In this document: in pieces, positions 40,136-48,805 of the stretch
Position numbering within the stretch: the first letter of the stretch is position 1
Layout: each line of letters opens with the position of its first letter
Assembly (NCBI GenBank): GCA_020350725.1
Contig: CP070719.1
Location: 1 to 64,000, forward strand
Direction: 5' to 3'
From: a bacterium
GTDB lineage: Bacteria > BMS3Abin14
Length of the DNA: 64,000 bases
Position numbers and translations under genes: made by a program
Notes under the pieces: model-generated
What the model was told of the DNA's origin: nothing
What the model saw: only the letters and a program-made list of their open reading frames with translations
Database searches by the model: none

Positions 40136-40552
40136 CTACCGGCGGCCGGCCACCTGAACCCGGATCACCGATTTTTCCAGCGTCACCTTGGCCCTCTCGT
40201 ATTCGGCGTCTTCCTTGCCGGCGGTGAGGATCTTCTCGGCTTCCTGTCTTGCCAGCTCGGCCCGGCTGAGATCGATCTCGGTGGCCTTTTCGGCCGTCTC
40301 GGCCAGGACCTTGACACTTTCCGCAGACACCTCCACGTACCCCCAGGACAAGGCGAGATGTTCCGATTGACCCCCCTTCCGGTAGACCATCTCGCCCACC
40401 TTCAGGGCCGTGAGGAAGGGAATGTGCCCAGGCAGGACGCCGAACTCCCCCTCGATGCCGGGCAGGATGACCTCGTCCACCTCCTCCGAGACGACCATGC
40501 GCTCGGGGGTGACGACTTCCAGGAGGATCTTGTCTTTTGTCTGTTCTGCCAT
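40136..40552 (-). CDS. atpC: F1Fo ATP synthase epsilon subunit
   Basis: A 138-residue epsilon subunit: beta-sandwich domain (LEVVTPERMVVSEEVDEVILPG.EGEFGVLPGHIPFLTALKVG) and a C-terminal helical hairpin (~90-138). It is part of the rotating central stalk and an inhibitor of ATP hydrolysis. Last gene of the operon. Confidence 0.96.
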   Translation of the reverse strand: MAEQTKDKILLEVVTPERMVVSEEVDEVILPGIEGEFGVLPGHIPFLTALKVGEMVYRKGGQSEHLALSWGYVEVSAESVKVLAETAEKATEIDLSRAELARQEAEKILTAGKEDAEYERAKVTLEKSVIRVQVAGRR

Positions 40553-40560
40553 AGCCTCTG

Positions 40561-42907
<2,347 letters not shown>

Positions 42908-42943: not shown

Positions 42944-44461
42944 TTATTGATAGACGAACTCGCCCTTGAACGCGTTGAGCGCTTCCTCGAGCTTGCCCTT
43001 GACCGCGTCGTCGATCTCCTTCTTCTCGGCCAGCTCCTTCATGACCTCCGGATGTCTATTGTCCATGAAGTGGTAGAGCTCCTCCTCGTACTTCAGGAGG
43101 GCCTCCACTGGATAGCCGTCGACGAAGCCGTTGGTGGCCGCGAAGATGATCAGAACCTGTTTCTCCACGGGAAGGGGGACATACTGATCCTGCTTGAGGA
43201 TCTCCACCAGCCTCTCGCCCCGGGCCAGCTGAGCCTGGGTGGCTTTGTCCAGGTCCGAGCCGAACTGGGCAAAGGCGGCCATCTCTCGGAACTGAGCGAG
43301 GTCCAGCCGAAGCCGGCCGGCCACCTGCCGGTAGGCCCTGACCTGCGCGGCACCCCCCACCCGCGACACGGAGATGCCCACGTTGATGGCCGGTCGGACC
43401 CCCGAATAGAACAGGTCGGACTCGAGGAAGATCTGGCCGTCGGTGATGGAGATCACGTTCGTCGGAATATAGGCCGACACGTCGCCGGCCTGCGTCTCGA
43501 TGATGGGAAGGGCCGTCAGGGAGCCTCCTCCCTCCTCGTCGCTCATCTTTGCGGCCCGCTCCAGCAGCCTGGAATGAAGGTAGAAAACGTCTCCGGGGTA
43601 GGCCTCCCGGCCGGGGGGTCTCCTCAGGAGCAGTGACAGTTGTCGGTAGGCGGCCGCATGCTTGGAGAGGTCATCGTAGATGCACAGGGAGTGCTGACCC
43701 TTGTCACGGAAGTATTCGCCCATGGCACACCCTGCAAAGGGAGCCAGGAAGAGCAGCGGTGCCGGCTCGCTTGCCGAGGCGGAAACGACGATGGTGAAAT
43801 CCATGGCGCCGTTCTCCTCGAGGTCCCGGACAACCCGGGCTACGGTGGATTCCTTCTGGCCGATGGCGACATAGATGCATATGACCGGCGGGTCGGCGTT
43901 CTTCTGGTTGATGATGGTGTCCACGGCCACGGCCGTTTTGCCCGTCTGCCTGTCGCCGATGATGAGCTCCCTCTGTCCGCGCCCGATGGGGATCATGGAA
44001 TCGACCGCCTTCAGGCCGGTCTGAAGGGGCTGATTGACCGGCTGCCTCCGGACGATACCCGGAGCGATGACCTCAACGAGCCTGCTGGTCTCTGTCTCGA
44101 TGGGCCCCTTGCCGTCGATGGGCTGGCCAAGGGCATTGACCACCCTGCCCAACATACCCTCGCCCGCCGGCACCTCCACGATGCGGCCGGTCCTCTTGAC
44201 GATGTCGCCCTCTTTGATGAGCTGATACTCACCGAGGAGCACGATCCCCACGTTATCCTCCTCCAGGTTCAGGATCATGCCGAAGACCTCTCCGGGGAGC
44301 TCCACGAGTTCGCCGGCCATGGCGTTCTCCAGGCCGTGAACACGGGCGATCCCGTCACCGGTGGAGAGGACGATCCCGGTCTCCTTGACATCGATGGTCT
44401 TTTCAAAGCCCTGAATCTGTTTCTTTATGATCTCGGTGATCTCTTCCGCTCGAATCTGCAT
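42944..44461 (-). CDS. atpA: F1Fo ATP synthase alpha subunit
   Basis: A 505-residue non-catalytic nucleotide-binding subunit with [14 protein letters not shown] at the N-terminus, P-loop [14 protein letters not shown], and the VGGAAQ..A.....[12 protein letters not shown] region. Standard length, between atpH and atpG. Confidence 0.98.
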
Positions 44462-45014: not shown

Positions 45015-45587
45015 TCAGTTAGCCTCCAGTTTTTCCAGGTATTCGCTGATAAAGCGCCTGTGGTCCTCAGGAGTCAGGTTCTCCTCGATGATCCCCCTTG
45101 CGATCTCCACTGAGGATTCGGCCACCTCTTTTCGGAGGAGCGCCTGGGATTTTTTCAGTTCCTGTTCGATGGCCGTTCTGGCTTCCGTTTTCAGCTTCTC
45201 GACGGCCTCTTTCGCCTCGGCCAGGATCCTTTCCCTTTCCACCTCGCTCTCCTTTCGGGCGGCGGCGAGGAGTTCCTCGACCTCCCGATCGACTCCGGCG
45301 AGGCGGTCTTCGGCCTCTTTCATCCTGGCCTCGGCTTCCTTTCGGGCCTCCTCGGCGTCGCTGAGCGATTTGCGGACCGCATCAATGCTGCTCCGGATCC
45401 CATCCACAACGGGCCTGCGGGCAAAATAGAGGATAACGCCCATGAGGATGGTGAAATTGACGATCCTCAGGACCAGGTCCCAGATGGCTCTGCCCCCGCC
45501 TCCGCCGCCCTCCGCGGCGCCGGCCACCGCCGGCAGCACCAGAAGGACGGTCGTCACCAGGACTCTGAGCCCCAGCCGCGGACTCAT
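45015..45587 (-). CDS. atpF: F1Fo ATP synthase b subunit (with N-terminal leader)
   Basis: A 190-residue b subunit. The N-terminus resembles a signal peptide (VLVTTVLLVLPAVAGAAEGG, ~residues 9-28) before the membrane anchor (~40-58), an arrangement seen in deltaproteobacterial b subunits. A long charged coiled coil (~60-165) follows. It pairs with b' encoded just upstream (4-nt overlap). Confidence 0.93.
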   Translation of the reverse strand: MSPRLGLRVLVTTVLLVLPAVAGAAEGGGGGGRAIWDLVLRIVNFTILMGVILYFARRPVVDGIRSSIDAVRKSLSDAEEARKEAEARMKEAEDRLAGVDREVEELLAAARKESEVERERILAEAKEAVEKLKTEARTAIEQELKKSQALLRKEVAESSVEIARGIIEENLTPEDHRRFISEYLEKLEAN

Positions 45588-46021
45588 GATCCACCTCCAA
45601 CGGCCCGCCCCATGAGCTTTGACGCGATCCTCCCGGCCAGGCCCTCGGCCTCTGCCTTGAGCACCTTCCGGGAAGATTCCGCCTCGGCGGCCAAGGCTGC
45701 CCTGGCCTTGTCCAGCTCCCCGACGTTCTCGATCTTGGTGTTCTGGACGGCCTCCCGGAAGAGGGCCATTGCCTCGCTCCGGTGGCCTGACCGCATGGCC
45801 ATGGACTCCTGCTTGGCGGTGTGGAGTTTGGACTCGTACTCCTGGATGTTCTCCTGGGCCAGGGTCCCCAGCCGTTCCTTCAGCTCGGCCGATTCCCGGA
45901 CCAGTTTCTCTCGTTCATCCAGGACCTTGAGGATTGGCCTGAAGAGCAGAAAGTTTAGAACTACCAGCAATATCAAGAAGTTGGCGAGCTGTACCAGTAA
46001 GGTAAAGTTAACGTTGATCAA
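45584..46021 (-). CDS. atpF': F1Fo ATP synthase b' subunit
   Basis: A 145-residue second b-type subunit with an N-terminal membrane helix (LLVQLANFLILLVVLNFLLFRP, ~residues 8-29) and a coiled coil. Having both b and b' implies a heterodimeric stator. An internal promoter (TTGACA at 46101-46096) may start a second transcript here; the 136-nt gap upstream is the largest in the operon. Confidence 0.92.
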   Translation of the reverse strand: MINVNFTLLVQLANFLILLVVLNFLLFRPILKVLDEREKLVRESAELKERLGTLAQENIQEYESKLHTAKQESMAMRSGHRSEAMALFREAVQNTKIENVGELDKARAALAAEAESSRKVLKAEAEGLAGRIASKLMGRAVGGGS

Positions 46022-46157: not shown

Positions 46158-46415
46158 CTAGCCCTTTACAACGAAGATGAGGAGCAGGGCGACCACCAGG
46201 GCGTAGATGCCCGTGGACTCGGAGACGGCCTGGCCGACCAGCATCGTCCTGGTCAGGAGGCCGGCCTCGTCCGGGTTTCTTCCTATCGCCTCACAGGCCT
46301 TGCCGGCGGCAAAGCCCTCTCCAATGCCCGGGCCGATAGCGCCGAACCCCATGGCCAACCCCGCCCCGAGCAGGGCCGCCGCCCTGATGAGTTCTGCTCC
46401 TGTGATTCCGTCCAT
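46158..46415 (-). CDS. atpE: F1Fo ATP synthase c subunit, single hairpin, two-carboxylate Na+-type motif
   Basis: An 85-residue two-helix proteolipid. Helix 1 carries GPGIGEG with Glu33 where Na+-type rotors usually have Gln. Helix 2 carries Glu66 in [15 protein letters not shown], with S67, T68 and Y71 matching the Na+-coordination pattern of Ilyobacter-type rings. The Glu33 + Glu66 pair matches the 'two-carboxylate' rotor described for Fusobacterium nucleatum (known family fact); Na+ use here is inference. The loop R46-N-P contacts gamma/epsilon. AAGGAGG lies 7 nt upstream of the ATG, far stronger than the site of the fused c gene before it. Confidence 0.95.
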
Positions 46416-46461
46416 TTACAAACCTCCTTGAGAACATTCAGATATAGGTGTTGATGCAACA

Positions 46462-46475
46462 CCCCCGTGCGGGGG
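46462..46475 (-). promoter_or_regulatory. Intercistronic hairpin between the fused-c and single-c genes
   Basis: CCCCC-GCAC-GGGGG forms a 5-bp GC stem in the 93-nt gap between the two c genes, without a T run. It may protect or process the downstream atpE message and so help set c stoichiometry (inference). Confidence 0.45.
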
Positions 46476-46508
46476 CTTTCCGTCAACCCAGCCCCAGGCC
46501 GAGCGCTC

Positions 46509-47252
46509 CTAAACGAGCATGACCAGGACCAGGGATATCACGAGGGCGTAGATGCTGGTCGACTGCGCCACTGCCTGTCCGAGCAGCATCACCCGTGTCA
46601 ACAGGCCCACGCACGCTTCGGGGTTCCTGTGATGTCTGATGCCGATAATCGCCGACTCCGCCGCGATCCCCGAACCCACCGACGGCCCCATGGCGCCGAA
46701 TCCCATGCAGATGCCTGCGGACAGCACGGCCACGAATTCGACGAAACCGGCGTCCGGTTTGGCGGGCAGGAAGATGAGCATAAAGGAGATCATGAGAGCG
46801 AAGATGACCGGCGTCTGGCTGACCGCCTGTCCCAGGAGCATCAGCGTCATGAAGGGCCTCCGAAGATGGGGCTGGCGGGCGATGGCCTCACAGGCCCAGG
46901 CGACGGGCAAAGAGCTCCCCACGCCCGAGGCGAAAGCGGCTGCGCCGATGGAGATCCCGGCCCCGAGGGCGGCAAAACCCTGGATCAGGGTGGCTCCCTG
47001 GATGTTTCCAAAGAGCAGGAGAATGGCCACCACCAGGGCGAAGGTCGGCGGTGTCGAAGCCGCGGCCTGCCCGATAAGCATGCTGCGGAAGAGCTCTGAG
47101 GTCATTTTGGGCTGGCGTCCCATCCCCTCGCAGGCTGCCCCGCCCGCCATGCCGATGCCGATCCCCGCACCGACGGCACCGAGCCCGATGGCCAGGGCGG
47201 CCCCCAGCAGGTAGAGGGTTTTAACAATCTCGGACGCAGCTACCGAATCCAT
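46509..47252 (-). CDS. Triple-hairpin fused c-type proteolipid lacking the ion-binding carboxylates
   Basis: A 247-residue protein of six helices: three tandem c-like hairpins (~7-82, ~87-163, ~168-247), each with GQA in its second helix and an RQP/RNP-type polar loop (R46-Q-P, R126-Q-P, R209-N-P). The ion-binding Glu of helix 2 is S66, Q146 and Q230 in the three units; the helix-1 position is I33, S113 and S194. Unit three is closest to the adjacent atpE and keeps S231, T232 and Y235. The gene lies between atpB and atpE in the same operon, with a weak ribosome site (GGGG, no clear AGGAGG). It may enter the c-ring as a silent segment, or act as an assembly or regulatory protein (inference). 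Fused c subunits are known from V/A-type rotors and Acetobacterium woodii, but those keep at least one carboxylate. Confidence 0.93.
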   Translation of the reverse strand: MDSVAASEIVKTLYLLGAALAIGLGAVGAGIGIGMAGGAACEGMGRQPKMTSELFRSMLIGQAAASTPPTFALVVAILLLFGNIQGATLIQGFAALGAGISIGAAAFASGVGSSLPVAWACEAIARQPHLRRPFMTLMLLGQAVSQTPVIFALMISFMLIFLPAKPDAGFVEFVAVLSAGICMGFGAMGPSVGSGIAAESAIIGIRHHRNPEACVGLLTRVMLLGQAVAQSTSIYALVISLVLVMLV

Positions 47253-47260
47253 GCGGGCCC

Positions 47261-47932
47261 CTATTTTATCGCCACCGATATGTAGGTGATGGTCAGCATG
47301 GTGAAGACGAAAGCCTGGATGGTGCCCACGAAGAGCCCGAAAAAGACGTAGAGGAAGGGCGGCAGGACCAGGCTGTACACCATGTGGGAGACAACGGCTA
47401 TGATAATGGCTCCCCCCAGAATGTTGCCGAAAAGACGGAAGGAGATGGAGACAACCTTGGCCAGCTCACCCACCACATTGAGGGGAGCCATGATGAAGAA
47501 GGGCTGGCAATAGTCCTTCAGGTAGGCCACGATGCCCTTTTCCCTGATCGCCGCCGTGTGGGTCAGGAAAAACCCCATGATTCCCAGGCTCAGCGGTGTG
47601 TTGAGGTCTTTGGTCGGCTCCGAGAGCCCGGGAATGATCCCGAGCCAGTTGCACAGAAGCAGGAAAACGAACATTGTCGCCACCAGGGGGACGTAGCCCC
47701 TGCTGGTGGTTTCCAGGGTCTCCCTGGTAAGCTTGTCCATGAACCCTACGTAGAGCTCGGCAAGCCTCTGGGCGGGGTTGGGCAGCTTTTGGAGGCGGCG
47801 GGTCGCGATAAGGGACAGAGCGAACAGGGCTACCATGATGAGCCAGGTGTTGAACACGGTTTCCGTGTTGACCGTCAGCCGCATGCCAAACAGCTCGAAG
47901 CTATATGTCGCAATCCGGGTCAGATCTTCCAT
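47261..47932 (-). CDS. atpB: F1Fo ATP synthase a subunit
   Basis: A 223-residue membrane stator subunit with the essential arginine in VSISFRLFGNILGGA and the C-terminal FVGTIQAFVFTMLTITYIS. It forms the two ion half-channels against the c-ring. Eight nt precede the fused-c gene. Confidence 0.96.
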   Translation of the reverse strand: MEDLTRIATYSFELFGMRLTVNTETVFNTWLIMVALFALSLIATRRLQKLPNPAQRLAELYVGFMDKLTRETLETTSRGYVPLVATMFVFLLLCNWLGIIPGLSEPTKDLNTPLSLGIMGFFLTHTAAIREKGIVAYLKDYCQPFFIMAPLNVVGELAKVVSISFRLFGNILGGAIIIAVVSHMVYSLVLPPFLYVFFGLFVGTIQAFVFTMLTITYISVAIK

Positions 47933-47949: not shown

Positions 47950-48333
47950 TTAATCCGACATGTCCTTGCCGATGAACTCGCCGGCAAACAGCATGACCTG
48001 GGCGCTGAACAGCGCCGGTATGGCTCCGCCCAGGGCAATGTTCTCGTTCAACCCGGCGTAGGCGAGAGCGACGGCCGTGACCGCCATCCTAAGTGCATAC
48101 CTTGCCGCGGCCGGGCCGAAGACCTTTCCGCCCAGCGCCAGCGCCTGGCCGGGTATGCTGCGGGCCATCAACAGAAGGTTGACAAGGCTGACAGCCCCGC
48201 CGAGGGCGACGCCTCTGGCCCAGGGTTTCTTTCCCGCTAGGATAAGCAGTCCAGCGACCACCAAAACGAGCGCCAGGGTCCGGAAAAATATCTGCCTGAC
48301 GTACCCTGAGAATGAAGCCTGCGGTGCGCTCAT
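47950..48333 (-). CDS. atpI: ATP synthase subunit I (AtpI-like)
   Basis: A 127-residue protein with four hydrophobic segments, in the expected place before atpB. AtpI-type proteins aid c-ring assembly or Mg2+ uptake. I start at MSAPQASF (48333); the open frame continues into the bactofilin gene region but that extension is not conserved-looking. An inverted repeat covers the start. Confidence 0.8.
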   Translation of the reverse strand: MSAPQASFSGYVRQIFFRTLALVLVVAGLLILAGKKPWARGVALGGAVSLVNLLLMARSIPGQALALGGKVFGPAAARYALRMAVTAVALAYAGLNENIALGGAIPALFSAQVMLFAGEFIGKDMSD

Positions 48334-48349
48334 ACCCAAAATTGGGTAT
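48332..48349. repeat. 18-bp inverted repeat at the atpI start
   Basis: ATACCCAA-AA-TTGGGTAT overlaps the ATG of atpI. It could hide the start in a small hairpin or bind a regulator of the ATP synthase operon. Confidence 0.5.
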
Positions 48350-48376
48350 ACAATATACTGTATCCCACTTCTATAA

Positions 48377-48805
48377 TCAATCGCCTTTTCCGACCTTGGC
48401 CTGCTCTTCCTGGTCGGCGGCACCCTTTCGCTCCTCCAGGGACGAGACCTTGCCCTCGCCCTGCGCCATGGAGCAGCTCCCCTCGAAGATCACCCCCTCC
48501 TCGATATGCAGTACAGGGGTCTTTATGTTGCCGAAGAGTCTGCCCGGGCGGAGGACCTCCACCTTCCCCGTGGCCGCGACGTTTCCCCGCAGGGACCCGC
48601 TGACCACGACAGTGTGAGCGTTGATCTCGGCATTGATCTGGGCGCTCTCGCCGACGATCAAGGTGTCCTTGGTGTAGATCTCCCCCTCCAGCTTTCCGTC
48701 CACGCGGACCGTACCCTCGAAGGTCAGGATGCCCTTGAATTCCGTTCCCTCACCGAGAAATGCCTTGATCTCTCCTCTTGCGCCGGCTGTCTCTTTCTTG
48801 ATCAT
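48377..48805 (-). CDS. Bactofilin family cytoskeletal protein
   Basis: A 142-residue protein with the bactofilin beta-helix core (~15-110: FLGEGTEFKGILTFEG.VRVDGKLEGEI, IVGESAQINAEI, VVVSGSLRGNV) between short polar tails. Bactofilins polymerise without nucleotide and in some bacteria position ParAB or chromosome ends. The place directly after parB is suggestive. It precedes atpI. Confidence 0.92.
   Translation of the reverse strand: MIKKETAGARGEIKAFLGEGTEFKGILTFEGTVRVDGKLEGEIYTKDTLIVGESAQINAEINAHTVVVSGSLRGNVAATGKVEVLRPGRLFGNIKTPVLHIEEGVIFEGSCSMAQGEGKVSSLEERKGAADQEEQAKVGKGD

What the first reader, a model, noticed from the sequence alone, without database searches (positions are those of the whole stretch)
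46509..47252. Fused triple-hairpin c-type subunit with no ion-binding carboxylate in any hairpin, inside a complete F1Fo operon
The gene sits between atpB and a normal atpE and encodes three tandem c-like hairpins that keep the GQA packing motif and the RQP/RNP loop that contacts the central stalk. The essential helix-2 Glu is replaced in all three units (S66, Q146, Q230). Known fused rotor subunits (V/A-type proteolipids, the A. woodii c1) keep at least one carboxylate. If it joins the ring it would add silent segments and change the ion/ATP ratio or act as a brake. If not, it may be a c-ring assembly scaffold or regulator. The repeats differ from each other, so an assembly duplication is excluded. 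This looks like an undescribed rotor variant.
Basis: partly seen in the sequence, partly recalled or inferred. Interest (0 to 1): 0.92.

Follow-up and report, generated by a model that had tools for sequence, protein, structure and literature searches.

The report
Rotor subunit without ion-binding sites
This bacterium's ATP synthase operon carries, beside the normal rotor protein, a conserved triple-length version that has lost every ion-binding site, so the enzyme may run with a blank stretch in its rotor that changes how many ions it moves per ATP.

Summary
Window 46509-47252 (-) encodes three fused c-type hairpins with S66, Q146 and Q230 at the ion site, between atpB and a normal Na+-motif atpE in a complete F1Fo operon. 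It is not decay: all 12 species held of this phylum carry it, dN/dS is about 0.06-0.2, and one genus keeps the earlier E-Q-Q state. It is one end of a wider family of fused F-type c proteins with 2-6 hairpins (43 of 395 Desulfobacterota-side genomes; rarer in Omnitrophota). Glu usually survives only in the first, sometimes also the last, hairpin; silent inner and last hairpins carry Gln in 113 of 113 cases. The closest solved relative, by sequence and fold, is A. woodii c1, which sits in a ring with nine single c subunits. Fused genes start beside the atpB stop with weak, a-like Shine-Dalgarno sites, while atpE has a strong one, which fits about one copy per ring. Best reading: a silent rotor arc that lowers the Na+/ATP ratio. 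Ring membership is inferred, not shown. Most of these genomes pair one canonical F1 with two a/c sets. New variant of the hybrid F/V rotor, not a new category.

The parts
46509..47252 (-). Fused three-hairpin c-like subunit, 247 aa, no ion-site carboxylate
   Evidence: ORF and translation; 3 PF00137 stretches, E 7.4e-36; closest PDB relative 4bem_J
47001..47252 (-). Hairpin 1 (residues 1-84): GQAAASTPPTF, Glu replaced by Ser66, helix-1 Glu replaced by Ile
   Evidence: Site table; S/Q/Q shared by the other sequenced members except one genus
46758..47000 (-). Hairpin 2 (residues 85-165): GQAVSQTPVIF, Glu replaced by Gln146
   Evidence: Site table
46512..46757 (-). Hairpin 3 (residues 166-247): GQAVAQSTSIY, Glu replaced by Gln230; most like the single c (0.55 identity against 0.50 and 0.39)
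46158..46415 (-). atpE, single-hairpin c, 85 aa, two-carboxylate Na+ motif (E32, E65, S66, T67, Y70 in I. tartaricus numbering)
   Evidence: PF00137 E 1e-19; residues; strong SD AAGGAGG
47261..47932 (-). atpB, subunit a, with the conserved stator Arg (SFRLFGN); its stop lies 8 nt before the fused-c start
   Evidence: PF00119 E 2.7e-49
47950..48423 (-). atpI-like
   Evidence: PF03899 E 1.7e-9
45584..46021 (-). atpF, first b-type subunit
   Evidence: PF00430
45015..45587 (-). atpF, second b-type subunit
   Evidence: PF00430
44468..45013 (-). atpH (delta)
   Evidence: ORF; used as query that finds delta in related operons
42944..44461 (-). atpA (alpha), the only F1 alpha in the genome
42050..42907 (-). 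atpG (gamma)
   Evidence: ORF; matches related operons
40561..41973 (-). atpD (beta)
   Evidence: ORF with GGAGVGKT P-loop; distant match to alpha
40136..40552 (-). atpC (epsilon)
   Evidence: ORF and sequence

Best explanation
The protein is a minor rotor subunit of a Na+-type F1Fo ATP synthase, a variant of the A. woodii c1 hybrid-rotor subunit. About one copy joins the c-ring with several copies of the normal AtpE and supplies three neighbouring hairpins that bind no ion. This leaves a silent arc and lowers the number of Na+ moved per three ATP. If the ring has 11 hairpins, as in the Na+ F-type rings characterised by 2013 (PMC3692424), that gives 8 sites, about 2.7 Na+ per ATP. Shown here: homology, loss of all sites, purifying selection, gene order, translation signals and a single F1. 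Inferred: membership of the ring, one copy per ring, the ratio, and any preference for ATP-driven Na+ pumping over synthesis.
For: Closest solved relative by sequence (E 4e-19) and by fold (Foldseek E 8e-7; VIA-align Z 16.6, rmsd 1.8 over 155 residues) is A. woodii c1, chain J of 4bem, an entry whose other listed c subunit is c2 with nine chains. A. woodii and C. aceticum c1 have the same E-then-Q layout (PMC7911925). All 12 species held of the phylum carry the gene; dN/dS about 0.06-0.2. Silent inner and last hairpins carry Gln 113/113, S or T66 is kept in every hairpin, and position 70 is Phe in first hairpins and Tyr in 44 of 46 last hairpins, as in single c. A start within 10 nt of the atpB stop is seen in 26 of 32 loci. 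Mean SD energy: fused -5.0, a -5.0, single c -10.3 kcal/mol; single c stronger in 39 of 41 loci. The stator Arg is kept in all 25 AtpB compared. AlphaFold model: three hairpins, pLDDT 90. AAAST-type loss arose again in another phylum, in hairpin 2.
Against: No protein-level evidence that the subunit is in the ring. In Bacillus PS3 a single E56Q in a fused c10 ring abolished ATP synthesis and ATP-driven pumping (PMC8809890), so three silent hairpins in a row need a tolerance known only from A. woodii and V-type rings. The fused gene evolves faster than atpE, as expected also of an accessory protein.
Confidence: 0.6

Rival explanations
1. The fused protein joins the ring but works as a brake or one-way clutch: with three silent hairpins facing subunit a, ion-driven rotation stalls, so this Fo only pumps Na+ at the expense of ATP (or is held off), while the second, H+-type a/c set on the same F1 makes ATP.
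For: A single E56Q stops PS3 (PMC8809890). One canonical F1 alpha but two a genes in most of these genomes. A silent run of three hairpins spans about 131 degrees in an 11-ring, close to one F1 step (arithmetic).
Against: A. woodii tolerates one silent hairpin; relatives have silent runs from 1 to 5 hairpins, with no fixed length as a clutch tuned to F1 would predict. No direction-specific data.
Confidence: 0.17
2. The fused protein is an assembly or sizing factor for the c-ring, or a regulator, and is not in the finished enzyme.
For: It binds no ion, has weak translation signals next to atpB, and evolves faster than atpE.
Against: Closest relative is a bona fide ring subunit (4bem_J). Most relatives keep a complete Glu/Glu site in hairpin 1 (33 of 38 first hairpins with Glu65 also have Glu32), which a scaffold would not need.
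Confidence: 0.14
3. It is a degenerating duplicate of c that has lost its function.
For: All carboxylates are gone.
Against: dN/dS about 0.06-0.2, with dS often near saturation, presence in 12 of 12 species, strict Gln at silent inner and last sites.
Confidence: 0.03

Closest known systems
Acetobacterium woodii / Clostridium aceticum F-type c1 subunit (hybrid F/V rotor; PDB 4bem chain J)
   Same: Fused c hairpins encoded in an F-type operon together with a normal Na+-motif single c; last hairpin has Gln for Glu; Phe70 in the first and Tyr70 in the last hairpin; best sequence and fold match.
   Different: c1 has two hairpins and keeps one Glu; the window protein has three and none, and its partner c has the two-carboxylate motif instead of Gln/Glu.
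V/A-type proteolipids (subunit c/K), e.g. E. hirae NtpK 2bl2
   Same: Hairpin fusion with loss of some carboxylates; same fold.
   Different: Weaker sequence match, an F-type operon here, and the known V/A subunits keep at least one carboxylate (established knowledge).
Fusobacterium nucleatum two-carboxylate Na+ c11 ring (PMC3692424)
   Same: The partner AtpE has the same Glu32/Glu65 pair.
   Different: Single-hairpin homomeric ring, no fused subunit.
Desulfococcus oleovorans ectopic second Fo complement (PMC4154653)
   Same: A second Fo set apart from F1, in the group where Fo-only modules with fused c are seen here.
   Different: The passages found do not mention hairpin fusion or silent sites; whether that species has a fused c was not tested.

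Membership tests
A. woodii c1-type hybrid-rotor subunit | Tandem c hairpins fused in one chain, in an F-type operon with a single-hairpin c | tested here: met
A. woodii c1-type hybrid-rotor subunit | Gln in place of the ion-site Glu in the last hairpin | tested here: met
   Q230; 27 of 46 last hairpins in the family are silent and all 27 carry Gln
A. woodii c1-type hybrid-rotor subunit | First hairpin keeps its ion-site Glu | tested here: not met
   S66 in the window and most of its phylum; the genus of L028 and L029 keeps Glu
A. woodii c1-type hybrid-rotor subunit | Partner c has a Na+-binding motif | tested here: met
   E32, E65, S66, T67, Y70 in atpE
A. woodii c1-type hybrid-rotor subunit | Found in the assembled ring | not testable with these tools
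   Needs protein work
Conventional F-type c subunit | One hairpin with a carboxylate in helix 2 | tested here: not met
   Three hairpins, none with a carboxylate
V/A-type proteolipid | Encoded with A/V-type subunits | tested here: not met
   F-type operon; the genome's A/V-type ATPase is elsewhere, near 2.17 Mb
Pseudogene or decaying duplicate | Relaxed selection, patchy presence | tested here: not met
   dN/dS 0.06-0.2; 12 of 12 species

The most novel reading that the evidence does not exclude
An F-type ATP synthase that has evolved a wholly ion-free rotor arc of about a third of the ring as a fixed gear or one-way clutch, used by cells in which one F1 is shared by two interchangeable Fo motors: a Na+ motor of variable gear (2-6 fused hairpins in different lineages) and an H+ motor.
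Probability: 0.3. Interest if true: 0.87.

Novelty: new variant of a known kind. Interest (0 to 1): 0.63.

Why it matters
The ion/ATP ratio of rotary ATPases is thought to be set by the number of carboxylates in the ring, and laboratory work on Bacillus PS3 found that one Glu-to-Gln change stops the motor. A natural family with 1 to 5 silent hairpins in a row, including a phylum whose fused subunit mostly has no carboxylate left, would show how evolution tunes this gear and how a rotor crosses an ion-free arc. It also makes a shared F1 with two Fo motors directly testable.

Tried and rejected
Assembly duplication: rejected; the hairpins are 0.39-0.55 identical to the neighbouring c and differ from each other, and orthologues exist in 11 further species. 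Pseudogene: rejected. Relocated carboxylate: none at the helix-1 site of any hairpin; the only acidic residue noted near a membrane segment is the Glu of AAESAI in hairpin 3, close to the cytoplasmic end. Conserved RNA element between fused c and atpE: not pursued, because spacing varies (19 to 243 nt where both starts were placed well). Matthies 2014 (PMC4228694) is not held; Brandt and Mueller 2015 was seen only as a cited reference, so its list of hybrid-rotor species was not checked. Two literature searches failed on syntax. NCBIfam models treat these proteins as ordinary subunit c, several above cut-off, so annotation gives no hint.

Full report
Observation. The minus-strand ORF 46509-47252 encodes 247 residues with three PF00137 stretches. 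At the helix-2 ion site the residues are S66, Q146 and Q230; the helix-1 Glu of the neighbouring c is replaced by I, S and S. The codons were read on the DNA. The gene lies between atpB and a normal atpE, inside atpI-atpB-fused c-atpE-b-b-delta-alpha-gamma-beta-epsilon.

Not decay. All 12 species held of this phylum (one family) have the gene (for the first 11 relatives). Pairwise dN/dS is about 0.06-0.2 for the fused gene and 0.01-0.1 for atpE, with dS often near saturation, so these are rough. In an AtpB tree, the two species of one genus (L028, L029), which have E-Q-Q, fall outside a group of all S-Q-Q species; support at that split is moderate (0.69), so a single loss is likely but not proven.

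A wider family. A search of 395 genomes from the phylum of a Desulfobacteraceae locus gave 43 with a multi-hairpin relative; 334 genomes from the phylum of an Omnitrophota locus gave about six with fused copies (the other rows there are single c). Hairpin numbers run from 2 to 6. Common patterns are E-Q, E-Q-Q, E-Q-Q-Q, E-Q-Q-E, E-Q-Q-Q-E and E-Q-Q-Q-Q-Q; a few have a third Glu, and three Omnitrophota copies have E-E-E. A two-hairpin Omnitrophota copy (L090) has G-Q, also without a carboxylate. Silent inner and last hairpins have Gln in 86/86 and 27/27 cases; residue 66 is S or T in all hairpins; residue 70 is Phe in all first hairpins and Tyr in 44 of 46 last ones and in all single c; helix-1 Glu is lost together with helix-2 Glu. 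These rules speak for packing inside a ring and against drift. Many of the sequences are related, so the counts are not independent events. In another phylum (4 of 4 species have a relative; the three complete copies have four hairpins) hairpin 2 is ETP in two species and AAASTP in two, the same kind of change as in hairpin 1 of the window: a recurrent route to a silent site.

Closest known. By sequence the best PDB match is A. woodii c1 (4bem_J, E 4e-19), in an entry with nine c2 chains. An AlphaFold2 model from six sequences has pLDDT 90 and pTM 0.87; its best match is again 4bem_J. C. aceticum and A. woodii c1 have a complete site in hairpin 1 and Q...QT in hairpin 2 (PMC7911925), and the A. 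woodii ring has 10 Na+ sites, 3.3 Na+/ATP (PMC7793690). ProAD says that c/K variants have two or more hairpins, each with or without an ion-binding site (PMC11738941), so the general fact of silent hairpins is known.

Dosage signals. In 39 of 41 loci the single c has a stronger Shine-Dalgarno pairing than the fused gene (means -10.3 and -5.0 kcal/mol). Subunit a, one copy per enzyme, has -5.0. The fused start lies within 10 nt of the atpB stop in 26 of 32 loci where both were found. Start sites were chosen by the best SD within a short range, for both genes alike. This fits about one fused chain per enzyme, but it is indirect.

One F1, two Fo. G000 has one alpha and two a genes. The same holds for most relatives tested; genomes with an extra, more distant alpha (about 50% identity, probably N-type) mostly have three a genes. 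In L011 and in four further Desulfobacterota loci (L141-L144) the fused c lies in a module of a, fused c, c and b genes without F1. The second c of G000 lacks the Thr67 and Pro28 of the Na+ motif, so it is predicted to be H+-type. Sharing of F1 is inferred from gene counts only; PMC4154653 reports a second Fo set in Desulfococcus oleovorans.

Mechanism. The likeliest reading is a silent rotor arc that lowers Na+ per ATP. With 11 hairpins (assumed) the window enzyme would have 8 sites. The main difficulty is that one E56Q in a fused PS3 ring stops the motor (PMC8809890). A. woodii shows that Na+ hybrid rings tolerate one silent hairpin. The genome also has one RnfD/NqrB-family gene, consistent with a Na+ cycle.

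Verdict. A real, conserved, all-silent form of the hybrid-rotor subunit within a larger, little-described family. New variant of a known kind. Ring membership remains to be shown.

Noticed in passing
G000 contig C1, about 201200-202200 (L019 11186-12317): A second a/c pair, predicted H+-type, without F1 or b genes nearby, followed by a multihaem-like cytochrome gene; the genome has only one F1 alpha.
   Followed up: partly
L011, L141, L142, L143, L144: Fo-only modules (a, fused c, c, b genes; atpI seen in some) without F1 genes in Desulfobacterota.
   Followed up: partly
L153 1017-1256, L154 5346-5567 (also L096, L097, L098): Omnitrophota single-hairpin c-like proteins with Ser at the ion site, encoded just before atpB, with the normal c just after it: separate silent c subunits.
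   Followed up: no
L088, L089, L091: Omnitrophota three-hairpin fused c with Glu in all three hairpins, beside a normal c.
   Followed up: no
L012 5504-6973: A six-hairpin F-type c with one Glu (E-Q-Q-Q-Q-Q), in a full F1Fo operon.
   Followed up: partly
window 46416-46508: Two short inverted repeats between the fused-c stop and atpE (CCCCCGCACGGGGG and GGTGTTGCATCAACACC on the minus strand); spacing is not conserved in relatives.
   Followed up: no
L033 1468-2418 (G013): A distant four-hairpin relative with E, Q, E, D at the sites, in a genome whose F1 alpha is far from it.
   Followed up: no
G000 contig C1, 2167797-2173187: An A/V-type ATPase with a single-hairpin K subunit in the same genome.
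   Followed up: no
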